Source of the DNA: a virus
Length of the DNA: 64,000 nucleotides
Direction: 5' to 3' (one strand)
Virus record (IMG/VR): IMGVR_UViG_3300021088_000005
Location: 1-64,000 of that record
The notes beneath the pieces are model-generated. The model searched no databases, had not been told where the DNA came from, and saw nothing but the letters and a program-made list of their open reading frames with translations. A program made the translations under genes and the position numbers. This document shows, in pieces, positions 27,981 to 40,983 of the stretch. Within the stretch, counting starts at the first letter, position 1. Every line of letters begins with the position of its first letter.

Positions 27981-28092
27981 ATTACAGCTTAGAATTTTGT
28001 CGTTAGTGATACTTGTTTCAATGGGTTGGACGATTCCGTCGGCCTGGGAAAAGTACGGGCAGATAGTAGATTTTGTTAGCTCACAAAAATAG
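27973..28092 (+). CDS. 39-aa membrane-anchored peptide
   Basis: ATG 27973, preceded by GAGGAG. One hydrophobic helix near residues 7-22, then a short polar tail. Promoter P6 begins four bases after its stop. Confidence 0.45.
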   Translation: MTKLQLRILSLVILVSMGWTIPSAWEKYGQIVDFVSSQK

Positions 28093-28095
28093 TGC

Positions 28096-28124
28096 TTGAC
28101 AAATTTGTGTGTTTATGTGATACT
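28096..28124 (+). promoter_or_regulatory. sigma-70-type promoter P6
   Basis: TTGACA 28096-28101, 17-base spacer, GATACT 28119-28124. The expected transcription start, about seven bases on, falls on the ATG at 28131. Confidence 0.8.
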
Positions 28125-28130
28125 TATACT

Positions 28131-29144
28131 ATGTTAGACAAAAACGGAAACGAGATTCGACGCGGCGACACAATTCGGAAAGCATACGAGACTGGTGTGG
28201 CTTCCGGACGCGGAGCCACGAAAATCAAAGCTAAGACAGTGACCTTCGCGGATCAGGCCGAGAAGTTCCTAGCCGATGGCGCAACCAGGAAGCGCAACCC
28301 GCTTCGTCCGGCGTCTCTTCGGACCTATCGGACGGTACTCAACACTTTGTTACCTCTAATAGGTAAACTTTCTCTGGAAACTGTTGGTAACAAAGTAGTT
28401 AAGGATGTTGTAACAAAACTATCCGACGAAGGGTACTCAGCGCGGTCAATCGCCCTTAATGTCGTTCTTATCAAGAAGATACGACGATCTGCCATCTCTG
28501 AAGACGGTGATCCGCTGTTCCCGTACGAGTGGAATACCGATGTTATCGATGCGCCGTCTACGGATGGTGATAAACAGCCCACGGTTAGCGCACAGCAGGT
28601 CCAGGACGCGATATCTAAGGCAGATACGTCCCGGAAGGCTCTGTACGCTCTATTGGCGTCCACGGGGCTCAGGATCGCGGAAGCGCTGGCAATTAAAGCA
28701 GGTCCGGACGACGGAGTAAGCACTATTTGGCTTCCGTTCGAGTCTAAGATCATAGTCCGGCAGCAGATGACCCGTACCGGGCTTGGGCCTACCAAGACCA
28801 AGGCGGGAGTCCGGGAAGTTGACTTGGCTCCGGAATTGAACGAATATCTATCCAAGATTGTAAACTCGGATACCGCGCTGTACCCGGTGTTCATGGAATC
28901 GGAAAGCAACTATCGTGGTTTGCTTAAGAAGGACGGCATCGCCGGAGGCTTTCATGCGTTCCGGCGCTTCCGGATCACCCATCTTCGGCTTAGCGGGGTT
29001 CCGGATGCGTTAATAAAGTTCTGGGTCGGGCACGCGGCTGGCAATGTCACCGAGCACTATACACAGGTGGCCGGGGAGATCGAGTCCCGGAAGTCATGGG
29101 CGGCTAAGGCAGGAATCGGATTCAAGCTACCGGAGGCCGAATGA
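28131..29144 (+). CDS. tyrosine recombinase/integrase
   Basis: 337 residues from ATG 28131. N-terminal SAM-like core-binding region (about 45-130, FADQAEKFL onward). Catalytic residues: Arg in TGLRIAEAL (~180), Lys in TKTKAGVRE (~225), HxxR in FHAFRRFR (~273-276), His in WVGHAAGN (~301) and Tyr in TEHYTQ (~312). All key residues are present. Could serve integration, dimer resolution or circularisation. No repressor or excisionase gene is recognisable nearby, so a temperate lifestyle is not established. Confidence 0.88.
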   Translation: MLDKNGNEIRRGDTIRKAYETGVASGRGATKIKAKTVTFADQAEKFLADGATRKRNPLRPASLRTYRTVLNTLLPLIGKLSLETVGNKVVKDVVTKLSDEGYSARSIALNVVLIKKIRRSAISEDGDPLFPYEWNTDVIDAPSTDGDKQPTVSAQQVQDAISKADTSRKALYALLASTGLRIAEALAIKAGPDDGVSTIWLPFESKIIVRQQMTRTGLGPTKTKAGVREVDLAPELNEYLSKIVNSDTALYPVFMESESNYRGLLKKDGIAGGFHAFRRFRITHLRLSGVPDALIKFWVGHAAGNVTEHYTQVAGEIESRKSWAAKAGIGFKLPEAE

Positions 29145-30343
29145 TTAAGGAACTGCAAGACCTAGCGCATGTAGCTATCAACACTTTTCTCCACAACCCG
29201 AACCAGTTTGCTTCGGGCGGTATTCTATTAATGGCAATCGGCGCAGTCGGTGCTATGCTCCGCAAGATTCCTTACCAAATTTGGGGATGGATTGTCCATC
29301 AGACTACTGTCACCATGAGCATCACAGACGATCAGCACGCGTACTATTGGATGAAGTCATGGATGGAAAACCAGCGCATCATGAAGCGCACCCGGCACAT
29401 GGATGTTTATAGCCGGGGAGTCTATAGTTACACAATGGTTCCCGCGCCGGGTCACCACTGGATGCTGTACAAGGGACGTATTCTGAGCGTACAGATAACC
29501 AGGACCGAAGAGAAAGTTTTGCAGAAGACACAACGCTCCGAGACCATCTCGTTCACAACTTTCGGTCGGAAGCAGAAGATATTCCGAGACATGATGGAAG
29601 AAATTCGCGAAGCGTCCGGGGAGAAGCAGGAGAAGGTTCCCGAGCTACACGCTTGGGGGTCATATTCGGAGTGGCAGCAGATTCACGGCTATGTGCCACG
29701 TCCATTAGAGTCAGTCATCCTGCCGCAGGCGGACAAGGATAAGCTGATTAAGGATATCGAGCACTTCCACGCGAGCCGCAAGTGGTATGGCGATATGGGA
29801 ATCCCTTATCACAAGGGATATCTGTTCTACGGACCGCCAGGGACCGGGAAGACAAGCTTGGTGACAGGTTTGTCGAGCTACTTCAAGTCGAATGTTTACG
29901 TGCTTAAGCTAGCCGATATGTCAGACAGCACACTGCGGGAAGCGGTCAGCGGAGTCGAGCCGAATTCGTTCCTGGTGATGGAAGATATCGACACAGTTAA
30001 CGCATCCAATACCAGAGAAGGCGAAGTCGAGAAGGATAAGGAACCGAAGCGCGGGGTTACTCTATCCGGGTTGCTTAATGTGATCGATGGTATCTTTTCT
30101 CCGTCTGGCGCTGTGTTTGTCATGACCACGAACCACAAAGAGAAGCTAGACCCGGCACTGATTCGTCCCGGTAGGGTTGACATGGAGTTGCACATTACTT
30201 TCGCAACCCCGGAGCAGAAGCAGGCATTGTACAATAGATTCTTTCCAGGCGACTGCCCGGAGAAGTATATCAGCCAGGTTATGACCATGGCGGAATTGCA
30301 GCAATCGCTTATGGAAGACAAGCAGATCGCGGAGGCTCGATAA
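29141..30343 (+). CDS. BCS1-like AAA+ ATPase with N-terminal membrane helix
   Basis: 400 residues, ATGA overlap with the integrase. Membrane helix at about 27-45 (GILLMAIGAVGAML), a BCS1-N-like beta-rich region (about 60-185), then the AAA+ module: Walker A GPPGTGKTS near 231-239, Walker B FLVMEDID near 276-283, sensor TTNHKEKLD near 328, and Arg residues in RPGRVD near 341-346. BCS1 translocates folded proteins in mitochondria; bacterial and phage relatives have poorly known roles, possibly in conflict. Confidence 0.8.
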   Translation: MIKELQDLAHVAINTFLHNPNQFASGGILLMAIGAVGAMLRKIPYQIWGWIVHQTTVTMSITDDQHAYYWMKSWMENQRIMKRTRHMDVYSRGVYSYTMVPAPGHHWMLYKGRILSVQITRTEEKVLQKTQRSETISFTTFGRKQKIFRDMMEEIREASGEKQEKVPELHAWGSYSEWQQIHGYVPRPLESVILPQADKDKLIKDIEHFHASRKWYGDMGIPYHKGYLFYGPPGTGKTSLVTGLSSYFKSNVYVLKLADMSDSTLREAVSGVEPNSFLVMEDIDTVNASNTREGEVEKDKEPKRGVTLSGLLNVIDGIFSPSGAVFVMTTNHKEKLDPALIRPGRVDMELHITFATPEQKQALYNRFFPGDCPEKYISQVMTMAELQQSLMEDKQIAEAR

Positions 30344-30432
30344 TGTGCATACTAGGCGGAGTACTAGGTGGTCTATTTGTTTTGGCCGTGATTTGGGTTG
30401 CGATGTTTATCATCGGGATAACGGCAGACTAA
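30343..30432 (+). CDS. 29-aa membrane peptide
   Basis: TAATG start after the AAA+ gene and TAATG overlap with the next. Nearly all hydrophobic. May act with the BCS1-like membrane ATPase. Confidence 0.45.
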   Translation: MCILGGVLGGLFVLAVIWVAMFIIGITAD

Positions 30433-30722
30433 TGTGCGAACACAGAGAATGCAAGCATAGCCTGGGTCCTGGCAGTCATTGCACGGAGTGCGACCGCCTA
30501 GCTCGTCTGGTAGCAGAACAGATGAAGAAGCAGTACAGGCCGTTATACGTTCAACGAACTACAACGACGATCCAGAATCCGTTTCGATTCCGGCCAGGTC
30601 AAATCGGCGGAATAGCCGATACACACGATACTACACCGCACGATGCGTTTAAGTTTATAACAGTGCGTGCTGTCCCGGACCCGGCGCATCAATCGAGTCT
30701 GGACTACTTGAAGGGCGTATGA
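30432..30722 (+). CDS. hypothetical zinc-finger protein, 96 aa
   Basis: ATG 30432. CEHRECKH and HCTEC at residues 2-24 form a compact zinc site. The rest is polar with little predicted structure. Confidence 0.5.
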   Translation: MCEHRECKHSLGPGSHCTECDRLARLVAEQMKKQYRPLYVQRTTTTIQNPFRFRPGQIGGIADTHDTTPHDAFKFITVRAVPDPAHQSSLDYLKGV

Positions 30723-30976
30723 AGCGCTATGTATATCGATGGGGATTTGTTTTCCGGGAGCCTGTTAATCAGGACTACACATACGTGTACCGATGGGGGT
30801 TTGTTTTCCGGAAACCGAGGCCGTGTTCGCCTGATTCGACAATCCCTGGATGGACTAGCACAGGAATTAATCGACAATTCTTTCAGTGCCGCCCAGGGCA
30901 GGTTATAGATTGTAACATGATTTCAGATTTAGTTTCTTTAGGCACACAAGGGATGTTCTTGAGGAAACGAGCATGA
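30719..30976 (+). CDS. hypothetical protein with repeated YVYRWGFVFR motif
   Basis: 85 residues, ATGA-coupled. YVYRWGFVFREP (4-15) and YVYRWGFVFRKP (22-33) are an imperfect direct repeat of 18 residues. Function unknown. Confidence 0.5.
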   Translation: MKRYVYRWGFVFREPVNQDYTYVYRWGFVFRKPRPCSPDSTIPGWTSTGINRQFFQCRPGQVIDCNMISDLVSLGTQGMFLRKRA

Positions 30977-31377
30977 ACGTATTCTGCTACTACTGCGGAT
31001 GCTTGACCACGACCGCCAGACACAACAATAAGAAGGGCGGAACCCTGCCCGACAATTTCCGAACGACTGACCACATGCTGCCGAGGTCCAAGGGCGGGCA
31101 CAGTTGGAGTTCGAACACAGTCTTCTGCTGCGATAAGTGCAACCGGGACAAGGGCTGCTTGACATTTGACGAGTACCGGGCTGTCATGGCGCACCGGAAA
31201 CAGCTATTGACCATCCCGGCTGCTAGGGTGTTCGCCGGGGAACGGTTCCCGAAGGCTATTTTCGCTGTAGTCCCAAATAAAGCGCAAAAGTTGGAGATTT
31301 TGCTTGACAACATCGTGGTGGTTGTGATACTATACATCATCGGGACTTTGATCCCTGCTGTTACGAGGCACACATGA
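30973..31377 (+). CDS. HNH endonuclease-like protein
   Basis: 134 residues. CYYCG near 5-9, TTDHMLPRSKGG near 31-42 (catalytic His region), NTVFCCDKCNRDKG near 48-61. A full HNH with zinc Cys pairs. The last ~25 residues are hydrophobic (IVVVVILYIIGTLI) and coincide with promoter P7, so the natural end or the promoter may have been overprinted. Homing or host-DNA cleavage are the usual roles. Confidence 0.7.
   Translation: MNVFCYYCGCLTTTARHNNKKGGTLPDNFRTTDHMLPRSKGGHSWSSNTVFCCDKCNRDKGCLTFDEYRAVMAHRKQLLTIPAARVFAGERFPKAIFAVVPNKAQKLEILLDNIVVVVILYIIGTLIPAVTRHT
31304..31332 (+). promoter_or_regulatory. sigma-70-type promoter P7
   Basis: TTGACA 31304-31309 within the HNH gene, then GATACT at 31326-31331 (spacer 16) or ATACTA with spacer 17. 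Drives genes from 31374, which lead to the NAD-related pair. Confidence 0.65.
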
Positions 31378-31643
31378 GGAATCCGTATATCGCCGCAGTT
31401 GAACGAAGGCTAACCGGGTCGTTTACTGTCCCTTGCGGGGGCGGCGTAATGCGTTCCTTGAACGAGGGCGAACTTAAGCTGTTAACTGATCTACTGAAGG
31501 AGCTTCAGAGGATGGACAAAAAATATAGCCTTCCGGTAGTCAGTAAACTTAGGCATGTCGCGGACGCGTGCGAGGCAGGTGGGCATAAGAGTCGCGCTAA
31601 GATGTTCCGTGCCTTAGCGAAAGAGTTTGAGGTGAACCTGTGA
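31374..31643 (+). CDS. hypothetical protein, 89 aa
   Basis: First gene after P7. Helical, with LLTDLLKELQRM. GTGA overlap with the next. Unknown. Confidence 0.5.
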   Translation: MRNPYIAAVERRLTGSFTVPCGGGVMRSLNEGELKLLTDLLKELQRMDKKYSLPVVSKLRHVADACEAGGHKSRAKMFRALAKEFEVNL

Positions 31644-31903
31644 CCAGACAGTACCACACAGAGATAGACGCGGACTTGAAGTGCGGCACCAGGGTTTACT
31701 TGATTCAGCGTGAGCCTGGGATGATATTCGAGTTCGAAGTCACCCCGCCGCCCGGAATCACAATTGAGGATTCCGCGAACGTCAAAGATGGCAAGCTGTA
31801 TGTCCGCATGACCAGGGAATCGATGGTCGGGCTGTTCCAGTTGTTTTACATGGTGCTGTTTCCGGGATACAAGCGCAGGAAGAAATTCTTAGGAATATTT
31901 TAA
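31640..31903 (+). CDS. hypothetical protein, 87 aa
   Basis: GTG 31640 in a GTGA overlap. Beta-rich first part, then a hydrophobic patch (VGLFQLFYMVLFPG) and basic tail. Unknown. Confidence 0.5.
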   Translation: MTRQYHTEIDADLKCGTRVYLIQREPGMIFEFEVTPPPGITIEDSANVKDGKLYVRMTRESMVGLFQLFYMVLFPGYKRRKKFLGIF

Positions 31904-31911
31904 GGAGACAT

Positions 31912-32508
31912 ATGAAGATCAGAAAAGCGAAGTCCAAACTATTTACAAATGCGGACATTTATTACGTTCCGTCGAAGTCTGGCGGGGACGAGCACATTGT
32001 AGTCCAGGTTGATGGAAGGCTGTTCTGCGACTGCAAGGATTTCATGACCCGCAGGTTGCCGTTGCTAACGTCGCCGGGATTCTCGATGTGTACTCACGGC
32101 AAACAGGTAGCGGCGCAGTTCGGGGTAATCCGCCCGGTTACTAAGCCCGCGAAGGTATTTAATATCTTCCGCAAGAGCCCGACTGCCGGATGGGTTGAAT
32201 CCCAACTAGGATCGAAGAATCAGTATTCGACTCACGAAGAAGCCCAAGCAGAACTGGACCGCCATCTTCGTCAATGCGAAGTCGGGCAGCACAAGTGCCC
32301 GCACACCAGAAAGGTATTCGAAGTCCAGGATGGTAAGCCGATCATCGAAGACAAAAAGTACGGAGTGTTCTTTACGCTCGGTGGACGACCGATGCGCTCA
32401 GAAGAATTGCCCAAAGTATATCCGACTCACGAAGCGGCGCAGAATGCAATCAAACGCTGCGGGCACAACGGAACGCTTGTTGATTTCTACGTCCAAGAGA
32501 TTAGCTAG
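31912..32508 (+). CDS. SWIM-type zinc-finger protein
   Basis: 198 residues, AGGAG upstream. FCDCKDF near 37-43 and CTHGKQVAAQ near 59-68 give the CxC-xn-CxH pattern of SWIM domains. The rest has two short repeats (STHEEAQAEL, PTHEAAQNAI). SWIM proteins bind DNA or partner proteins, often with recombination factors. Target unknown. Confidence 0.6.
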   Translation: MKIRKAKSKLFTNADIYYVPSKSGGDEHIVVQVDGRLFCDCKDFMTRRLPLLTSPGFSMCTHGKQVAAQFGVIRPVTKPAKVFNIFRKSPTAGWVESQLGSKNQYSTHEEAQAELDRHLRQCEVGQHKCPHTRKVFEVQDGKPIIEDKKYGVFFTLGGRPMRSEELPKVYPTHEAAQNAIKRCGHNGTLVDFYVQEIS

Positions 32509-32516
32509 GAGGAATC

Positions 32517-32726
32517 ATGGATTCCAAGTATTGGTTTGTTGTTGAAGGATTGTTCGAGGTCCGGTCAGACGGCACAATTAACTATCTGCCCGGATACACC
32601 CCGGAGAAGGCTAGTCAGGCGTTCGACACTTGGTATAACTCTAGGACTACGATGTTCGACTCTCACGGTCCGGCCATCGAGGGACATGAAATTGCGGTCA
32701 TAAAGAAGATTGAGGAAACCAAATGA
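32517..32726 (+). CDS. small hypothetical protein, 69 aa
   Basis: ATG 32517 after TAGGAGG. Compact alpha/beta protein. ATGA overlap into the NAMPT-like gene suggests co-translation with the NAD module. Unknown. Confidence 0.5.
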   Translation: MDSKYWFVVEGLFEVRSDGTINYLPGYTPEKASQAFDTWYNSRTTMFDSHGPAIEGHEIAVIKKIEETK

Positions 32727-34195
32727 ATCCGATTTTCTACATAGACTTCTACAAGGTTGGACACGTAGTCCAGTACGCCAAAGGGACTCAACAGGTCTGG
32801 TCTAACTGGACTGCCAGGTCGAGTCGCACAAACCGCAACTCGGTGGTGTTCGTCGGGCTCCAATACTTTATTAAGAAGTATTTGATTGAAGAGTTCAATA
32901 AGAATTTCTTCGGACGCTCGCTGCAAGGGCTATTGAACGAATACCGGGAAGTTATCAAGGCAACCCTAGGCGTAGAATACCCGAAGACCGATCATATCGA
33001 GTATCTTCACAATCTAGGCTATTTGCCACTGGACTTCTACGCTCTGCCAGAAGGGGTTAGTGTACCAACTAAGGTACCATCGGTGGTTGTCACGAACACT
33101 GACGACAATTGCTACTGGCTACCGAACTATATTGAATCCGTGATGTCCGCTATTTTGTGGAAGCCAAGCACATCGGCTACGACCGCGCAGGACTATCGTG
33201 ATCTGTTCATTCACCATGCCAAGCGTTCCGGGGAGACCGATCTTTCGTTTGTTAACTGGCAAGGGCACGACTTCTCGTTCCGTGGCATGTCCGGGCTAGA
33301 GGATGCTATTTTGTCCGGTATGGGTCATTTGACTTCGTTCAACGGCACCGATACTCTGCCTGCTATCCTGGCAGCTAGACAATACTACGGTGCTGATTTG
33401 TCAGTCGGCGGGTCGGTTCCTGCGACAGAGCATTCGGTTATGTGCTCCGGCGGACAGGACGGAGAGTTCGACACATTCAAGCGGCTAATCACCGAGACTT
33501 ACCCTACCGGAATTGTTTCGGTCGTATCGGACACATGGGATTTGTGGAAGGTACTGACCGACTATGTTCCCAGGCTCAAGGAAACCATCTTAGCTCGGGA
33601 TGGCAAGCTGGTTATCCGTCCGGACTCGGGAGACCCGGTTGAGATCATTTGCGGAGCCAAAACTGCTACCTGGCATTCCGCGCCTATGGCAACCCCGGCT
33701 GACAAGGGTACGTTGCGTCTGTTAGCTGAGACGCTAGGAACGAATCTCCCCGATGGGTGCCGTTTGCCGTTAATCAATAAAGCAGGTGCTATCTACGGAG
33801 ATTCGATTACTCTGAAGCGTGCCGATCAGATTCTGACCCGGACGATTGACGAGCTAAAGCTGAGCCCGTACAACATGGTGTTTGGAATCGGCAGCTACAC
33901 CTATGAATATGTCACCAGGGACACCTACGGGCACGCGATGAAGGCTACCGCAGTCCGAAACAACAATCAGATTATCCCGATCTTCAAGAAGCCTGTCACA
34001 GACGACGGATTGAAGACAAGTCTTAAGGGCATACCGTGCGTATACCAGAAGGAATGGAGCACTAGCTATTATGTGATCGATGGCTGCAAGCCTGAGTCAC
34101 TTGACAACTGTGCGTTCCGCAAGGTATTCTCGGACGGCAGATTATTAATTGACGAAAAATTCGATACAATCAGAAAGCGAGCGAGACATGAGTGA
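32723..34195 (+). CDS. nicotinamide phosphoribosyltransferase-family enzyme (NAMPT/Namat-like)
   Basis: 490 residues, full NAMPT length. DFYKVGH near 8-14, WTARSSR near 32-38, HDFSFRGMSG near 185-194, GTDTLPAI near 211, ATEHSVM near 233, SVVSDTWDLW near 262-271 and IRPDSGDP near 293-300, all in NAMPT order. Canonical enzymes make NMN from nicotinamide and PRPP. In the phage NARP1 pathway a homologue instead joins nicotinamide to ADP-ribose-pyrophosphate. The PRPP-synthetase-like partner two genes on favours one of these NAD+-restoring roles. Confidence 0.85.
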   Translation: MNPIFYIDFYKVGHVVQYAKGTQQVWSNWTARSSRTNRNSVVFVGLQYFIKKYLIEEFNKNFFGRSLQGLLNEYREVIKATLGVEYPKTDHIEYLHNLGYLPLDFYALPEGVSVPTKVPSVVVTNTDDNCYWLPNYIESVMSAILWKPSTSATTAQDYRDLFIHHAKRSGETDLSFVNWQGHDFSFRGMSGLEDAILSGMGHLTSFNGTDTLPAILAARQYYGADLSVGGSVPATEHSVMCSGGQDGEFDTFKRLITETYPTGIVSVVSDTWDLWKVLTDYVPRLKETILARDGKLVIRPDSGDPVEIICGAKTATWHSAPMATPADKGTLRLLAETLGTNLPDGCRLPLINKAGAIYGDSITLKRADQILTRTIDELKLSPYNMVFGIGSYTYEYVTRDTYGHAMKATAVRNNNQIIPIFKKPVTDDGLKTSLKGIPCVYQKEWSTSYYVIDGCKPESLDNCAFRKVFSDGRLLIDEKFDTIRKRARHE

Positions 34196-34439
34196 TATAT
34201 TCGAGCAAGATCATAGCCTAAAAGGATTTCCAGAGCGTATCTATGTTGCCGATCAGGTTGCTTACGGCAGCTACAGTCACGATAGGTTTTCCGCTGCGTT
34301 TGAAGATGTGGACCTTGCAGTTGGTGTCGGGGAGCCTGTAGAAGTAGGAATCTACCAGCTTGTCCGGGTCGCGAAGTTCCAGAAGACTGCGGTCGAGGTC
34401 AAAACCCTAAAGGAAATCAAAAATGATACTAACATTTAA
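34188..34439 (+). CDS. small hypothetical protein between NAD-module genes, 83 aa
   Basis: ATG 34188 within the end of the NAMPT-like gene; overlaps the synthetase gene by 17 bases. Acidic with a beta-rich C-terminal half. The tight overlaps make it part of the same unit. Unknown. Confidence 0.5.
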   Translation: MSDIFEQDHSLKGFPERIYVADQVAYGSYSHDRFSAAFEDVDLAVGVGEPVEVGIYQLVRVAKFQKTAVEVKTLKEIKNDTNI

Positions 34440-35280
34440 CTTCCCTGAAAACACAGGGCTAGACCAATTCAACATGTTCCGGTACCCAGGCGGAGAAGTC
34501 CAGGTTCGACTGACCGAGCTAGCGGTGCGGTATTTGACCAGACTGAATCCCGAGACCGATAATGTCATTGTCATAGCTCGAATCCAAGACGGCGAGATTG
34601 TCTCGATAGCTCAACTACTGGACGCCATCAGATCGGTTACCGCAGCCAACGTGCAGTTGATTCTTCCTTATCTTCCGTATGGCAGAGCGGATCGCAGGTT
34701 TGTTGAAGGTGACTCGGACGGTCTCGCGGTCTTCGGCAGGCTACTTGGCATGATGGCTTACGATATTGTCACCCTGGACGCGCATTCACCGAAGGCTGTC
34801 CGCAACATCCGGCACCTTCTGGACGTGAGCCCGAAACCGATCATTGAGCAAGTTCTACAGATGATTCCAGGTTCAACCAACATCTTGCTTCCGGATAACG
34901 GCGCTAGACGTTACGGATTCGGGGATTTGTCGGCAGAAAAGCAGCGCGACCCGGCAACCGGGAAGCTGTCCGGTTTCAAAGTCCCTGATAAGGCGGCATT
35001 CGGCGCGGACAACATCTTGATTATCGATGACATCTGCGACGGTGGTAGGACATTCATCGGAATCGCGGATGCATTGCGGGAAGCCGGGGTTTACAAGCCG
35101 TTGTATCTGTATGTCACTCATGGCATTTTCTCGCAAGGAATCGGAGAATTATTGCACAGGTTCGAGCACATCTACACTACTGACAGCTTCAATAACGAAC
35201 CGTGGAATTCAAACAGGCTGACAAGAATACCGTGCGCGTTGACTATTGTCAGCGCCATCAAGAATAGGAACGCAAAATGA
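34423..35280 (+). CDS. PRPP synthetase-like enzyme (possible ADP-ribose pyrophosphate synthetase)
   Basis: 285 residues. LPYLPYGRADRRF near 84-96 is the ATP-binding flexible-loop region, LDAHSP near 118, and the pyrophosphate-binding loop IIDDICDGGRTF near 203-214 (canonical enzymes have DDxxDTGGT). Shorter than bacterial Prs (about 315). Could supply PRPP to the NAMPT-like enzyme or, as in NARP1, pyrophosphorylate ADP-ribose. Substrate is not determinable by eye. Confidence 0.8.
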   Translation: MILTFNFPENTGLDQFNMFRYPGGEVQVRLTELAVRYLTRLNPETDNVIVIARIQDGEIVSIAQLLDAIRSVTAANVQLILPYLPYGRADRRFVEGDSDGLAVFGRLLGMMAYDIVTLDAHSPKAVRNIRHLLDVSPKPIIEQVLQMIPGSTNILLPDNGARRYGFGDLSAEKQRDPATGKLSGFKVPDKAAFGADNILIIDDICDGGRTFIGIADALREAGVYKPLYLYVTHGIFSQGIGELLHRFEHIYTTDSFNNEPWNSNRLTRIPCALTIVSAIKNRNAK

Positions 35281-35345
35281 GATTCTTATTCTGGCTAGTA
35301 ACCCCCACCGTTAATCTCGACCCCGGTGTTGTGGCTCGTAGATAA
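35277..35345 (+). CDS. 22-aa peptide
   Basis: ATGA overlap with the synthetase stop. Hydrophobic beginning RFLFWLVTP. May be a fortuitous or coupling ORF. Confidence 0.3.
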   Translation: MRFLFWLVTPTVNLDPGVVARR

Positions 35346-35354
35346 GATTATAGA

Positions 35355-35588
35355 ATGGAGGAACAAATGAAGAAAGCTTTGTTGAAGATTTTCTTTAAGA
35401 AGTGGCTTATGGTTGCCGGATACTTAGCGGGGACGGTAGTCGCTGTCGGAATCCCTATGACAATAGGTATCCTGCTTAAGCACCATCTGATTGCCGAAGC
35501 AGTCTACGTATTTTTGCTATTCACAGGGTTGTTTGCTTTGCTAGAAACCGCCTGTGAGGGAGAGAATAACGGAGGCGACCCGCGATGA
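35355..35588 (+). CDS. membrane protein with two TM segments, 77 aa
   Basis: ATG 35355, or 35367 after GGAGG. Two hydrophobic helices at about 19-40 and 46-66. A holin candidate, but no lysis gene is adjacent. Confidence 0.5.
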   Translation: MEEQMKKALLKIFFKKWLMVAGYLAGTVVAVGIPMTIGILLKHHLIAEAVYVFLLFTGLFALLETACEGENNGGDPR

Positions 35589-35788
35589 CAAAACAATTGA
35601 CATTCGATCTGGAATTTAAGAAAGACGGGATAGTCGCGCTGACAGACGCAGGGGTAACATTCCTGAGTCTATACCGGGACAACCAAGACTTGTCCCATGC
35701 GTATCGAACAGCAACCGGATACGGACTACACGTCCGGTTCGAGACCGCTGATATCCGTGACCGAATCGCTCGGGTTCCGATCAGCTAG
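35585..35788 (+). CDS. hypothetical protein, 67 aa
   Basis: Last rightward gene, ATGA-coupled. Alpha/beta, unknown. Its 3' end overlaps a small leftward gene. Confidence 0.5.
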   Translation: MTKQLTFDLEFKKDGIVALTDAGVTFLSLYRDNQDLSHAYRTATGYGLHVRFETADIRDRIARVPIS

Positions 35789-35869
35789 CTCTTCCGGAGC
35801 TATCACCTTATCGTAGAACTTCGCCCGGATGTCTGCGATCTCTTGGAATAGTTCGTTTAGCTCGGTCAT
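35726..35869 (-). CDS. small hypothetical protein at the end of the virion arm, 47 aa
   Basis: ATG at 35869 overlaps the TGA of the giant ejection gene (ATGA) and GGGAAG precedes it. Acidic helical peptide (MTELNELFQEIADIR). It overlaps the convergent rightward gene by 63 bases. Unknown. Confidence 0.45.
   Translation of the reverse strand: MTELNELFQEIADIRAKFYDKVIAPEELADRNPSDSVTDISGLEPDV
35786..35802. terminator. hairpin at the convergence of the two arms
   Basis: TAGCTC (35786-35791), loop TTCCG, GAGCTA (35797-35802). Six pairs, starts at the stop codon of the last rightward gene. No T-run on either strand, so only a possible terminator. Confidence 0.3.
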
Positions 35870-38800
35870 TTCTTCCCAAATAATGAATTAAGAGTCTTTT
35901 GTCCGTCTTCAACGAACCAACTTGACAGATCACTTCTCATGTGAGTTACGCTCAATATGTAGTCTATAGCCTGAAGTTTGTCTTCGGCAGTCTTAGCCAT
36001 CATCAAGTCCGCCGCGCCGCGTTCCAGTTTGTCCATTCCGTAATCTGTGATTCTCCAGCCACCTTTTCCGTCATCAAAGAAGTTTTCATTTTTCTCGAAG
36101 TGCCCTTCCGGAACCTTGTCGCCAGTTATGTCTTCTGCGTACTCTTCTGGACTGTACGGAGAGTGTCCGGTCAAAATATTGTTAGCGTGAAGTTTGTGTA
36201 TGTTCTCCAGGACAGTATCCGCGATCCTATCTATGCCAGCTTCGTCCCTGACAAACCCGTTCTTAGCATAGTCATTCCAAATCTTCTTCAATCTTCCCGC
36301 AGGAACTACGCTCCACTTCTGACGTTGATCCGGCTTCCCTAGGGAGTCTTTATACTCCGACATGACATTATCGGCAACTTGATTTCGTCTATCGATATAA
36401 TTTTCCACAACTTCGTAGGGAACTTCTCGATTCGGGCTCAGCTTCGGGTTCTCCGGGGTCTTCAGTGCCTCAATTCCGGCTGCGAACTTTGCGCGGCTGT
36501 CCGCAAGTCTCTGCCTGATTGCTTCCGCAGTTATCGGCTCTGTAGCCTTAATGTTTAGGGTTGATCCGGTCTTAGGGTCGTGGAACGATTTTAGCTCATA
36601 CGGCTCCCCAGGGAACATTCGTCCCGCAGGGATAGCGCCAGCGTCACGGATAGCCTCATCAGCTTTTGGGTCTCCGGTGGTAGTCTCGCGTAGTCCTAGC
36701 TTTGGGTTTTCTGGGGTTTCAACTGCTCGTCCAGGTGCTTCCGGACTTCCGCCTTCTGTTCCGGGGACATTTTCTGGATGTCCTGAGCCGCCTTCTCCGC
36801 CATTTGCTGTATTGTTAGCTCCATTTTGTGCTCTCCGTTGAATTTCGTTATGCATTGCTCGAAGTCTATCTTCGCTATAGTGGAACTGACGAGATAGACC
36901 CGGCTCTCTAAACCCTGCATTCTCCTTAATGATATCAGAAACTTCCGGTTTTGTCAAGTGAGATTTTGCAGAGTCTACTGCCTGATGTAGTTTTTCTTGA
37001 ATCTCACCCTCAGTATACCCCGCACGCAACATCATCCTACGCGCCATACCAGCGTCTGATCCTGGGCGCGTCGAGTCGAAATTGACATTATTGTCTCTTG
37101 GCTGCTCGTTAAAAACCTCATCCGCAGCTATTCCACCCATCAAACTACGTACAAGACTAGGAACACTCTCTGGCTTTATAGCGCCACTAGGGTCGGATAT
37201 ATTATCGTACTCGAATCTTACAGCGCCCCTCTTCGCTCCTATGGCCTGCAAATCTGGATGAAGATGGCTAAGCATGCCGCGAACATCTAACCCGCTAGCA
37301 AGCCCCACAAGAGCATGGCCTAGCTCATGTCGCTCTACATTTATATCCGGTTTTGTGAATTCCTGGTTAACTCCGGGGTTCCCAAAACGGTGCGACTTGC
37401 CAGTTGGAACCTTATACTCCCCCGCAGGAATCGGCTCGGGTCCGGTCGTGGTGCCCCAAGTAGACTCGCCTGGGAACTTCTTCTGCGCAACTCTGATAGC
37501 ATCCTTACTACTGAACGCAGGAACTTTCTCAATGCGGGAGTTTCCCTGGGAGTCTATGACTTCAATAGGCCAGTTTTGTTTTCTGGCTGATTGAAGCTCA
37601 TGCATCAGGTCTTCGGATTCTTCCGCGCCTAGCTTTGGGTTTTCCGGCTTTAAATTTTCAATTGGCACGTATGCCTTTATAGTTTTATCCCCTCGCATAT
37701 CTGCCGCAGCTATTCTATGATTGCCATCTACAACTTCACCGTCTCGGTCAAGAACAATAGCTGGAAGAGGAGATTTCAACTTCGCGTATTTTTCAGCTAA
37801 CGCTGGATTGTAATTATCTCCAGCATATACATATCCTTTTCTAGGAACAAAATTATCCAAATCTTCTTGGGTGTCGGGAACACGCTGTATAGGAACATCT
37901 TTTAAAGCGTATTTTCCTGCACCGTATTGTTTAGTGAGATATCTCGCGTCCTCTTCAGATATCTTAGATGTCTTCATCAAGTGGTTAACTACATCGCTGC
38001 CGTCTACTATTTTTGTCCCTAGCTTTGGGTTTGCTGGTCTGGGCTGGGGCTCTGTTGCGGCTGATTCATTTCTTCGTACGCCTTCGCCTTTTCCTTTAGC
38101 AGGTCCCTTCCCCTTCGGTCGAAGCTTTGCTGGATTCCCTTCCTCAGTTGCTGTTTCTGATCCGGCTCCATTCCCTGTAGCTGGTCCCTTAGCTCCTGGG
38201 CCATTTGCTGGAGGCTTCCCTGTTGGCTGTTCATTTGATGCTCCCTTAGTGTCCTGTATAATTTGTTGTAGCCTGCCAGGAGACACATGATGCTGATTGT
38301 CTAGTCCTGCTTCTCTAAACGACGCGTGATCTTCGATTACTTTCTGAACTCCGGGCTTAGACAGCACTGTCGCAGCATCTTCCTGTGCCTGACGTATCAT
38401 CTTGTTAGCTTCTACTTCTGTGAACCCGGCGTCCTTAAATATGCCTTTCAACGCTTTCATATCCGCGCCTAGGTGATGGTTCTCTCCTGCTGGAATATCG
38501 TGGTAAAGGTCATTGGCGACCCCACCAGCCACGTATGTAGCCGCGATGTCCGCCATGCGTGATTTAATCTTGTTCCAGTCAATCTGTTTATCTTCACCTA
38601 CGAAGTCGGTCCAGTCAATCGGAGTGCTCATTAAGCTACCCAAAGATACGTTCTCCGGGTGAATGTGACTTCTGATTCCGTCAGACACCTTAAGCCCGCG
38701 TGCATCTGCGACAACCGCATGAGCTATGTCATGAACTATTCCCATTTGGGTGTCCATTCCCTTAGCTAACCCGGAACGCGGAGCCTGTAGTAGTGGCTCG

Positions 38801-40983
38801 ACCTTCTCCGGAAGAGTAGCGGTTGGCAACTGCTTACCGGACTCTATGTTCTGCTGCATTTGCTTCTGCGCAGCTATTGTGTCTGCGGCATTCGCCTTGT
38901 TAATCTCGGTAACTATCTTCTTCTCATCCGGCTCTAGCGGCAATCCATGGCTCTGTTTATCTGCGACATCGTCCAGGAATCTCTTCTCTAGATCGACATA
39001 GCTAGACTTCCCTAAAATCTCACCGTAGTGGCTAGCGATAGCAACATGCAGTGGGGTGTTCTCGCGTTGCGGAACGAACATCTGCATAACCGGGCTAACG
39101 GGTTCCGGTGGGCCATATTGTCCCGCAGCTTTGCCTTCGTAGCCAAGGTTTGTTAACGCTACTCCCTTGTCCTTGACAGTGTGAATTCGGTCAGCTAGCT
39201 GATCTCGGGTCAGGTCTCCAGGAGCTATTCGCTTACCTAGTCGGTCTCCAAATGCTTTACCCATTCCATACCCGAGTGTTCCGCCGACTTCCGCACCTAC
39301 TACTCCACCTACATTGTATCCAATAGTTCCGCCTATTCCCGCTCCGCCTGCGGCTCCTAGGGTCGAAGCACCCTTCGCCAAGTTCTTAACAAACCATCCG
39401 GACTCTCCTGAACCTCGAACCGGCTGATCGCCCTTGCTGGCTACCTTCTCTAGAGCAGTCTTAACACGTATAATAGACGCTTGGTCTCTGCGCAGTCCTC
39501 TTACTCCGCTAACTCCACGTTCTTGCAGCGCACCGTCTATGCCAGTTCGGAGGCTATCCGCAGCCCAATACCTAGCTGCAAATTCCGGATCGGCGCGTAG
39601 TGCGGTAGCGACATCCCAGAAATTTCTCTTAAGAGTAGCTCTATTCAGTGCGTTTATGTCTGTGAGTATCTTTTGTGCTTCTTCTACCGTAGGATCGGTT
39701 AGGTTGAACTTTTGTGACAGATGGTTCATTCCGTCTTCTACAAAATCCTGCTGCGGACTGTCAGCTAGTTTATCGCGAACGTCTTGATTAACATTTGTAG
39801 TGATCGCGTCCTTTCCATACTTGTCTACGTGTCTTCCTACTTCGGTGTCGATATCATCTGATAGCTGCTGAGCAGCGTTCACATGATCTTCTACCGTATG
39901 GATAGGATTAGTTTCATGCAGCTTCTCCGAAGCGCCTAAGAATATCTGTGCATCTTTATCCGAATATGCGCCTTGTGTTGTATTAGTCGGAGGAGCCATC
40001 TTCTTAAAGTTATCAACAGCTTGGCGAACTGCTCTATCCTGCTTCTCACTAGTCTTCGGTATGTTTTGAACCTTACGGTTTAGCCTATCCAGTTCTGCCC
40101 CGGCCTCTATTCTTGCAGTGTGGGCGTCCTGTAGCGCAGTGCTTGCCTTACGTGAGTTTGCAGCCGCAGCGGACGCTCGGTTGTTCGCGTCGTCTACGTG
40201 CTGCTGAGTTACATTCGGATCGCCGCTATCGTGGGCCTGGGTTATTCTCTCGGCTTCCTCGCGTGCTTTGACAGCCTGGTCGGTAGCGATCTGCTGTTCT
40301 CTCAAACGCTGATCGAACATAGCGGTCGCAGAATCATGCGTAGCGCTAGCGACCTGATGCGCACGGATATCTGACCGGAAGGTCTTAGCGATTCTCTCAT
40401 GCTCGCCGCCGATTAACGTAGCTGCGATAGCAGGTACAGATTCTCCTACTATTCCTGCGATGTCTCCCTTGGCTGCTCTTTCGCGTATTCCTTCTGGGTC
40501 GAGACCAGCAACTCCGCCGATACCGCTAGCGACTGAAGATATAACAGGCTGGCCTTCATCGCGAGCCCTAGTATATCCTTCGTATACGCCTTTCGCGCCT
40601 TCGTACGCGCTATAAACTCCGCCTGTCACAAGATTAGCAGCGACAGACTTTGCGGTTTCGGTTGCAGAACTAGGCAACATAGCCTTTGTTCCCGCAGCTA
40701 CTCCGGAACCAAATCTAGACACCGCTCCCGGTTGCGCCTGCGGTTGATTATCGAACCCGAAATCGTATCCGGCCTGCGGAGTGGGCGCAGAAGCTGGTGC
40801 CGCAGCAACTGACTGAGGCTTCCCGAATCCGAAATCGAATCCGGACGATTGTGGCTGAGCCTGCGGGTCAACTGGCCCTAGTGGTTTGCCCGAAATGTCG
40901 TATGCAACACCGTTTTCTACCCTGGTCGCGTTAGGATATTGCGCAGGGGTTTGAATCTGCTCTGGTTCTGGAGTATCAACCAT
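35866..40983 (-). CDS. giant internal virion/ejection protein, 1705 aa
   Basis: Position after the tail genes and huge length match podovirus internal proteins that enter the host with DNA. N-terminus has two G-[FY]-DFGF repeats; coiled coil about 205-320; Gly-zipper about 540-580 (GGTIGYNVGGVVGAEVGG). An M41-like peptidase domain appears twice: near 750 with HDIAH (Glu to Asp) and near 1219 with intact HELGH followed by GGIAADE. Between them is a ParB/Srx-like segment with DGNHRIAAA near 1087. The motif NPKL[GS] occurs four times (about 985, 1117, 1425, 1513). Possible roles are cell-wall or host-protein cleavage during entry. Confidence 0.75.
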   Translation of the reverse strand: MVDTPEPEQIQTPAQYPNATRVENGVAYDISGKPLGPVDPQAQPQSSGFDFGFGKPQSVAAAPASAPTPQAGYDFGFDNQPQAQPGAVSRFGSGVAAGTKAMLPSSATETAKSVAANLVTGGVYSAYEGAKGVYEGYTRARDEGQPVISSVASGIGGVAGLDPEGIRERAAKGDIAGIVGESVPAIAATLIGGEHERIAKTFRSDIRAHQVASATHDSATAMFDQRLREQQIATDQAVKAREEAERITQAHDSGDPNVTQQHVDDANNRASAAAANSRKASTALQDAHTARIEAGAELDRLNRKVQNIPKTSEKQDRAVRQAVDNFKKMAPPTNTTQGAYSDKDAQIFLGASEKLHETNPIHTVEDHVNAAQQLSDDIDTEVGRHVDKYGKDAITTNVNQDVRDKLADSPQQDFVEDGMNHLSQKFNLTDPTVEEAQKILTDINALNRATLKRNFWDVATALRADPEFAARYWAADSLRTGIDGALQERGVSGVRGLRRDQASIIRVKTALEKVASKGDQPVRGSGESGWFVKNLAKGASTLGAAGGAGIGGTIGYNVGGVVGAEVGGTLGYGMGKAFGDRLGKRIAPGDLTRDQLADRIHTVKDKGVALTNLGYEGKAAGQYGPPEPVSPVMQMFVPQRENTPLHVAIASHYGEILGKSSYVDLEKRFLDDVADKQSHGLPLEPDEKKIVTEINKANAADTIAAQKQMQQNIESGKQLPTATLPEKVEPLLQAPRSGLAKGMDTQMGIVHDIAHAVVADARGLKVSDGIRSHIHPENVSLGSLMSTPIDWTDFVGEDKQIDWNKIKSRMADIAATYVAGGVANDLYHDIPAGENHHLGADMKALKGIFKDAGFTEVEANKMIRQAQEDAATVLSKPGVQKVIEDHASFREAGLDNQHHVSPGRLQQIIQDTKGASNEQPTGKPPANGPGAKGPATGNGAGSETATEEGNPAKLRPKGKGPAKGKGEGVRRNESAATEPQPRPANPKLGTKIVDGSDVVNHLMKTSKISEEDARYLTKQYGAGKYALKDVPIQRVPDTQEDLDNFVPRKGYVYAGDNYNPALAEKYAKLKSPLPAIVLDRDGEVVDGNHRIAAADMRGDKTIKAYVPIENLKPENPKLGAEESEDLMHELQSARKQNWPIEVIDSQGNSRIEKVPAFSSKDAIRVAQKKFPGESTWGTTTGPEPIPAGEYKVPTGKSHRFGNPGVNQEFTKPDINVERHELGHALVGLASGLDVRGMLSHLHPDLQAIGAKRGAVRFEYDNISDPSGAIKPESVPSLVRSLMGGIAADEVFNEQPRDNNVNFDSTRPGSDAGMARRMMLRAGYTEGEIQEKLHQAVDSAKSHLTKPEVSDIIKENAGFREPGLSRQFHYSEDRLRAMHNEIQRRAQNGANNTANGGEGGSGHPENVPGTEGGSPEAPGRAVETPENPKLGLRETTTGDPKADEAIRDAGAIPAGRMFPGEPYELKSFHDPKTGSTLNIKATEPITAEAIRQRLADSRAKFAAGIEALKTPENPKLSPNREVPYEVVENYIDRRNQVADNVMSEYKDSLGKPDQRQKWSVVPAGRLKKIWNDYAKNGFVRDEAGIDRIADTVLENIHKLHANNILTGHSPYSPEEYAEDITGDKVPEGHFEKNENFFDDGKGGWRITDYGMDKLERGAADLMMAKTAEDKLQAIDYILSVTHMRSDLSSWFVEDGQKTLNSLFGKK
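36696..36824 (-). CDS. nested ORF B inside the ejection gene, 42 aa
   Basis: Different frame from the host gene. ATG at 36824 with GGAGAG about eight bases upstream. Encodes a charged helix with QQMAEKAAQDIQKMSPEQKA. Resembles nested ORF A (38019-38234). The main frame here is low-complexity Gly/Asn/Pro. Ends in TQS-stop where the main frame reads NPKLG. Confidence 0.45.
   Translation of the reverse strand: MELTIQQMAEKAAQDIQKMSPEQKAEVRKHLDEQLKPQKTQS
38019..38234 (-). CDS. nested ORF A inside the ejection gene, 71 aa
   Basis: Different frame from the host gene. ATG at 38234 with AAGGGAG six bases upstream. Helical Gln/Lys/Arg-rich protein with LQQMAQELRDQLQGMEPDQK, similar to nested ORF B. 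The main frame here is a Gly/Pro/Ala/Lys linker. Ends in TQS-stop over the main-frame NPKLG. Confidence 0.5.
   Translation of the reverse strand: MNSQQGSLQQMAQELRDQLQGMEPDQKQQLRKGIQQSFDRRGRDLLKEKAKAYEEMNQPQQSPSPDQQTQS

What the first reader, a model, noticed from the sequence alone, without database searches (positions are those of the whole stretch)
32723..35280. Candidate phage NAD+ reconstitution module (NARP1-like)
Seen: an NAMPT-family gene and a PRPP-synthetase-family gene separated by one small overlapping gene, all translationally coupled and downstream of promoter P7. Established: phage NARP1 consists of an ADP-ribose-pyrophosphate synthetase related to Prs and a nicotinamide ADP-ribose transferase related to NAMPT, which rebuild NAD+ after NADase defence. 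The synthetase has a nonstandard pyrophosphate loop (DDICDGGRTF). The 83-aa gene between and the 69-aa gene before could be extra components.
Basis: partly seen in the sequence, partly recalled or inferred. Interest (0 to 1): 0.75.

Follow-up and report, generated by a model that had tools for sequence, protein, structure and literature searches.

The report
Phage NAD+-rebuilding gene pair (NARP1)
This phage carries the known two-enzyme kit (NARP1) with which viruses rebuild NAD+ after a bacterium destroys it to stop infection; only the reversed gene order and one small extra gene set this copy apart.

Summary
A 490-aa NAMPT-family gene (32723-34195), an 83-aa gene (34188-34439) and a 285-aa PRPP-synthetase-family gene (34423-35280) overlap on the + strand of a 100.8-kb viral contig. 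The NARP1 reading survives every computational test available. The NAMPT-like protein is 48% identical to the crystallised SPbetaL1 Namat. It keeps the published catalytic residues and the adenine "selectivity clamp" (GSYTYEYVTRD plus R35), which all seven Nampt controls lack, and it falls on the Namat side of a fully supported split. The synthetase lies outside the housekeeping-Prs clade (100/100), scores 196 versus 25 bits on Adps and Prs profiles built without its own clade, and has a confident Prs fold. Its "nonstandard" loop DDICDGGRTF is the usual Adps loop. The genome has no NMN adenylyltransferase, so direct ADP-ribose + nicotinamide to NAD+ synthesis is the most economical route. Neither enzyme's substrate was tested. 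Differences from characterised NARP1 are small: the order is Namat-first, a minority order seen in 20 of 125 sampled viral loci, and the 83-aa gene is a conserved but dispensable insert of unknown function. The 69-aa upstream gene is not a conserved component. New member of a known kind.

The parts
32723..34195 (+). Namat-like nicotinamide ADP-ribose transferase (NAMPT fold), 490 aa
   Evidence: 47.7% identity to crystallised SPbetaL1 Namat (PDB 9W5W/9W5X), 33% to Xcc Nampt; Namat clade vs Nampt clade SH-aLRT 100; Namat-profile 622 vs Nampt-profile 292 bits
33890..33922 (+). Selectivity-clamp helix motif GSYTYEYVTRD (residues 390-400), the Namat signature GSX-Phi-X-Phi-X-Phi-TRD
32825..32827 (+). 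R35, equivalent of clamp-loop R40 of SPbetaL1 Namat (adenine stacking)
33431..33433 (+). H237 in PATEHSVM, the conserved catalytic histidine position
   Evidence: alignment
34188..34439 (+). 83-aa gene between Namat and Adps; conserved small protein, function unknown
   Evidence: 65% and 57% identical homologues at the same place in L009 and L008; dN 0.27-0.49 vs dS 1.06-1.41
34423..35280 (+). Adps-like ADP-ribose-pyrophosphate synthetase (Prs fold), 285 aa
   Evidence: outside housekeeping Prs clade 100/100; Adps-profile 196 vs Prs-profile 25.5 bits; AF2 pLDDT 90, Prs fold Z about 25
35026..35055 (+). Adps-type ribose/pyrophosphate loop DDICDGGRTF (residues 202-211)
   Evidence: most Adps rows read DDICDGGxTF or a close variant (SPbetaL1 group DDLSSFGGTF); all 7 housekeeping Prs have DT[AG]GT[LIM]
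32517..32726 (+). 69-aa upstream gene, overlapping the Namat start (ATGA); probably not a module component
   Evidence: only the C-terminal tail GPAIEGHEIAVI is conserved in L008/L009/L016
30732..30811 (+). 26-bp direct repeat (30732-30757, 30786-30811) upstream of the gene run that ends in the module; possible phage promoter, untested

Best explanation
This is a NARP1 counter-defence module. Inferred mechanism: when a host NADase defence (TIR, SIR2 or SEFIR effector) splits NAD+ into ADP-ribose and nicotinamide, the Adps-like protein (34423-35280) transfers pyrophosphate from ATP to C1 of ADP-ribose to give ADPR-PP, and the Namat-like protein (32723-34195) displaces the pyrophosphate with nicotinamide to give NAD+ in one step, so infection goes on. 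Shown here by sequence: the family membership of both enzymes, the intact catalytic and adenine-clamp residues, the absence of a phage NMN adenylyltransferase, and an overlapping gene arrangement. Inferred from characterised relatives: the substrates, the reaction, translational coupling and the anti-defence role. The 83-aa insert is most likely a small dispensable phage gene that hitch-hikes in the operon and is not needed for the chemistry, because close relatives lack it.
For: Namat: every NAD+-contact residue published for SPbetaL1 Namat is conserved or conservatively replaced (A362 to S, F392 to Y), including R40/F392/Y396 as R35/Y392/Y396; all seven Nampt controls read GGGLL or similar at the clamp. 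Namat clade separated from Nampt, SH-aLRT 100. Left-out profiles: Namat 621.7 vs Nampt 291.7 bits; Adps 196.1 vs Prs 25.5 bits. Adps tree: housekeeping Prs form a 100/100 clade on a 1.49 branch without the window; the window groups with phage Adps. Adps loop. Prs fold, pLDDT 90. Almost every related viral locus carries both genes, and one natural Adps-Namat fusion exists. No NMN adenylyltransferase domain in the 100.8-kb record, with 14/14 positive controls. Biochemistry of relatives SPbetaL1, DyoEdafos and P. foliorum, and genetics of ICP1 NrsAB (PMC12774641, PMC13232231, PMC11559045).
Against: No activity measured. Window Adps is only 22-32% identical to characterised Adps and their relatives (20% to Prs), and no residue rule for ADP-ribose specificity of Adps was found in the literature searched; PMC12774641 calls it obscure. 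Namat enzymes also use PRPP in vitro, so PRPP use cannot be excluded. Gene order is opposite to the characterised NARP1 operons examined here. The Namat tree is a quick tree with long branches in the outgroup.
Confidence: 0.9

Rival explanations
1. Ordinary nicotinamide salvage: a phage PRPP synthetase makes PRPP from ribose-5-phosphate and a NAMPT makes NMN, which the host adenylylates to NAD+.
For: Same folds and chemistry; Namat retains about half of human Nampt's PRPP activity in vitro (PMC12774641); database names say PRPP synthetase / nicotinate phosphoribosyltransferase.
Against: Clamp residues are those of Namat, not Nampt; both proteins are outside ordinary Prs/Nampt; no phage NMN adenylyltransferase, whereas three of the seven Nampt controls (L256, L257, L259) are preceded by one.
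Confidence: 0.05
2. A NARP1 module with a working third component: the 83-aa protein feeds or regulates the pathway, as RyDEP (inserted in the DyoEdafos NARP1 operon) turns cyclic ADP-ribose signals into ADP-ribose.
For: Precedent of RyDEP (PMC13232231); the 83-aa gene is under purifying selection and keeps the same slot in the window, L008 and L009; the slot in other loci often holds ADP-ribose or NAD genes.
Against: No RyR domain in the genome with a positive control; no meaningful similarity to RyDEP; no family match above cut-off; absent from L007, L010 and L016, where Namat and Adps abut; a weak relative in L015 lies away from the pair; AF2 uninformative (pLDDT 41).
Confidence: 0.1
3. Phage NAD+ metabolism for its own sake (e.g. 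feeding replication or NAD-dependent enzymes) rather than counter-defence.
For: NARP1-like pairs also occur in bacterial chromosomes, where the role is unclear (PMC12774641).
Against: Where tested, phage NARP1 acts against NADase defences and imposes a cost without them (ICP1 NrsAB versus Nezha, PMC11559045).
Confidence: 0.1

Closest known systems
NARP1 of Bacillus phage SPbetaL1 (Adps WIT26982, Namat WIT26983)
   Same: Two enzymes, same families; Namat 48% identical with all NAD+-contact and clamp residues kept or conservatively replaced; genes overlap
   Different: SPbetaL1 is Adps then Namat with no insert; window is Namat, 83-aa gene, Adps; Adps only 22% identical and with the DGG rather than the SSFGG loop
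NARP1 of Mycobacterium phage DyoEdafos (gp77 Adps, gp78 RyDEP, gp79 Namat)
   Same: Adps and Namat with a small gene inserted between; DDICDGGGTF loop; Namat 46% and Adps 30% identical
   Different: Insert is an RyR-domain glycosidase, unrelated by sequence to the 83-aa protein; opposite gene order
ICP1 NrsAB
   Same: Adps-Namat pair in a lytic phage
   Different: Adps first; Adps 24% identical to the window's
NARP2-type phage salvage (Nampt + NMN adenylyltransferase, e.g. RcXuper, Cp1R7A-A1)
   Same: NAMPT-fold enzyme that rebuilds NAD+ from nicotinamide
   Different: Nampt lacks the adenine clamp; partner is NMN adenylyltransferase, absent here

Membership tests
[quoted passage not shown]
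   GSYTYEYVTRD, residues 390-400 (Y392, Y396); Phi2 is E instead of the usual Q/N, as in L169 and relatives
NARP1: Namat | Stacking residue in the clamp loop (Arg40 of SPbetaL1 or equivalent) | tested here: met
   R35 aligns with R40
NARP1: Namat | Nampt-type catalytic core (D13, Y15, F189, R192, D215, R306, D308, catalytic His) | tested here: met
   D8, Y10, F184, R187, D210, R299, D301, H237
NARP1: Namat | Phylogenetic placement with Namat rather than Nampt | tested here: met
   (quick tree, SH-aLRT 100)
NARP1: Namat | Makes NAD+ from ADPR-PP and nicotinamide | not testable with these tools
   needs assay
NARP1: Adps | Prs-fold enzyme outside the housekeeping Prs family | tested here: met
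NARP1: Adps | Adps-type loop (DDICDGGxTF or SSxGGTF) instead of Prs DT[AG]GT[LIM] | tested here: met
   DDICDGGRTF; the loop rule is derived here from aligned Adps-like and Prs rows, not from a published mechanism
NARP1: Adps | Phosphorylates ADP-ribose, not ribose-5-phosphate | not testable with these tools
   needs assay
NARP1 | Adps and Namat genes adjacent | tested here: met
   227 nt apart with one overlapping gene between
NARP2 (Nampt + NMN adenylyltransferase) | NMN adenylyltransferase in the genome | tested here: not met
   No PF01467 match in the 100.8-kb record; 14/14 control genomes positive. The record may be incomplete
RyDEP | RyR domain in the inserted gene or elsewhere | tested here: not met
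   No PF02026 match in G000; DyoEdafos positive control 33.5 bits

The most novel reading that the evidence does not exclude
The 83-aa gene encodes a new NARP1 accessory, for example a protein that binds or degrades an ADP-ribose-type immune signal or controls the two enzymes, in a NARP1 variant in which Namat is translated before Adps.
Probability: 0.1. Interest if true: 0.55.

Novelty: new member of a known kind. Interest (0 to 1): 0.3.

Why it matters
It adds a coherent clade of uncultivated ~100-kb phages with a Namat-first NARP1 and helps fix sequence rules (adenine-clamp motif, Adps DGGxTF loop) that separate NARP1 from ordinary Prs/NAMPT, which public annotation still calls PRPP synthetase and nicotinate phosphoribosyltransferase. 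If the 83-aa gene had a role it would be a further accessory of the pathway, like RyDEP.

Tried and rejected
83-aa protein as a nucleotidyltransferase: the Pfam NTP_transf_2 match (E=0.013, below cut-off) rests on a GS...DxD pattern that is not conserved in the 65% and 57% identical homologues, so rejected. 83-aa as a RyDEP: rejected. AF2 of the 83-aa protein: uninformative (pLDDT 41). 69-aa gene as a component: only a C-terminal tail is shared by otherwise different upstream ORFs. Scans of IMG/VR with the 83-aa protein found no further locus. No Macro, NUDIX or NMN-adenylyltransferase gene was found in the record. No DNA-level relative among 50,697 phage records. No Rfam match in 30300-36000. 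NADAR, KptA and SIR2 were not searched for genome-wide.

Full report
Observation. They lie on a 100,810-base viral record. Profile searches place the 490-aa protein in the NAMPT/nicotinate phosphoribosyltransferase families (PRK09198, 488 bits) and the 285-aa protein in the PRPP-synthetase superfamily. The latter is below the cut-off of the true ribose-phosphate pyrophosphokinase model (83 of 113 bits), as is the characterised SPbetaL1 Adps (106 bits).

NAMPT-like protein. Its closest solved structures are 9W5X and 9W5W, the SPbetaL1 Namat bound to nicotinamide and NAD+ (E about 1e-133), described in PMC12774641. That paper defines Namat by an adenine selectivity clamp: the helix motif GSX-Phi-X-Phi-X-Phi-TRD plus a loop Arg. 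The window protein has GSYTYEYVTRD and R35. It keeps the published NAD+ contacts, with the conservative changes A362S and F392Y. Six NARP2-type or stand-alone phage Nampts and Xcc Nampt have GGGLLQxVxRD-like sequences and no Arg in the loop. A tree of 69 proteins separates seven Nampts from 62 Namat-type proteins with SH-aLRT 100, the window among the latter (quick method, with long outgroup branches). Profiles built without the window's clade score it 622 (Namat) against 292 (Nampt) bits; the Nampt controls show the reverse.

PRPP-synthetase-like protein. Housekeeping Prs of seven bacteria were fetched as controls. Each of those genomes holds one Prs (TIGR01251 348-372 bits) and one Adps-like paralogue (112-148 bits). 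In a 75-row tree the seven Prs form a 100/100 clade on a branch of 1.49; the window sits with phage Adps, nearest to L009. Profiles built without its clade give 196 (Adps) against 25.5 (Prs) bits. An AlphaFold2 model from 22 aligned sequences is confident (pLDDT 90, pTM 0.88) and has the Prs fold (Z about 25 over about 265 residues, 19-22% identity). A Prs fold is expected for Adps and does not by itself tell the two apart.

Pairing and gene order. Almost every viral locus fetched by similarity to either protein carries both genes nearby. Among non-identical viral loci 105 are Adps-first and 20 Namat-first; among bacterial loci 35 and 5; this sample is biased towards relatives of the window. 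One virus has a natural Adps-Namat fusion of 803 aa (L144). The characterised SPbetaL1, DyoEdafos and ICP1 operons are Adps-first, so Namat-first is a minority arrangement, shared by the window's nearest relatives L007-L011, L013, L016 and L030.

The 83-aa gene. It is a true gene: homologues of 65% and 57% identity stand at the same place in L009 and L008, with dN 0.27-0.49 against dS 1.06-1.41. L007, L010 and L016 lack it, and there the two enzyme genes abut or overlap, so it is dispensable for the pair. It matches no family above cut-off, is not an RyDEP, and its model is uninformative. In other loci the same slot often holds ADP-ribose or NAD genes: Macro, NADAR, KptA, a nucleoside deoxyribosyltransferase-like family, phosphoesterases, or RyDEP. 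An accessory role is therefore possible but unsupported. The 69-aa gene shares only its last ~20 residues with upstream ORFs of relatives.

Mechanism and verdict. The record has no NMN adenylyltransferase, Macro, NUDIX or RyR domain, so the most economical pathway is the direct one of NARP1: ADP-ribose + ATP to ADPR-PP (Adps), then ADPR-PP + nicotinamide to NAD+ (Namat). Shown: families, residues, arrangement. Inferred from characterised relatives: substrates, reaction, translational coupling, counter-defence. The same phage encodes a dNMP kinase; in the Kongming system such a phage enzyme triggers NAD+ depletion (as described in PMC12774641), so a NARP1 would be useful to this phage, but that link is speculative.

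Noticed in passing
L144:5881-8292 (IMGVR_UViG_3300049830_000142): Natural fusion of Adps and Namat in one 803-aa protein, with both the DDICDGGATF loop and the GSYTYQCNTRD clamp motif; PHROG 12872 also matches both enzymes of the window.
   Followed up: partly
L017, L032, L046, L101, L169, L189, L209, L217, L223, L249 (between Adps and Namat): The slot between the two NARP1 genes repeatedly holds ADP-ribose/NAD-handling genes: Macro, NADAR, KptA/Tpt1, Nuc_deoxyri_tr2, calcineurin-like phosphoesterase, RyDEP. A systematic survey of this slot could find further accessories.
   Followed up: partly
L024:2604-3023, L040:7454-7864, L056:5519-5956 and similar: A recurrent ~140-aa protein with a DFD(D/N)T motif (HAD-phosphatase-like, no Pfam match for L024) sits directly beside Adps/Namat in many viral loci; identity unknown.
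   Followed up: no
PDB 9KE8/9KEO: This solved 'Nicotinamide phosphoribosyltransferase' groups inside the Namat clade but has a degenerate clamp motif (GAQTYQRNTRD), so its substrate may differ.
   Followed up: no
L168:14066-14779 (G000 96566-97279): The same phage encodes a deoxynucleoside monophosphate kinase, the kind of enzyme that triggers the NAD-depleting Kongming defence.
   Followed up: no
G000 75817-82872: Cluster of 32 tRNA genes covering nearly all amino acids.
   Followed up: no
window 30732-30811: Two copies of a 26-bp sequence (TATATCGATGGGGATTTGTTTTCCGG, 3 mismatches) 54 bp apart and found nowhere else in the record at up to 8 mismatches; possible phage promoter or operator.
   Followed up: partly
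window 28092-30343: Tyrosine-recombinase-like gene followed by a BCS1-like AAA ATPase overlapping by 4 nt; the recombinase is also found upstream of the NARP1 module in L007, L008, L009, L014, L015 and L016.
   Followed up: no
window 35866-40983 (- strand): 1705-aa protein with internal repeats, no Pfam/PHROG match above threshold; homologues downstream of the module in L008, L009, L014, L015 and L016.
   Followed up: no
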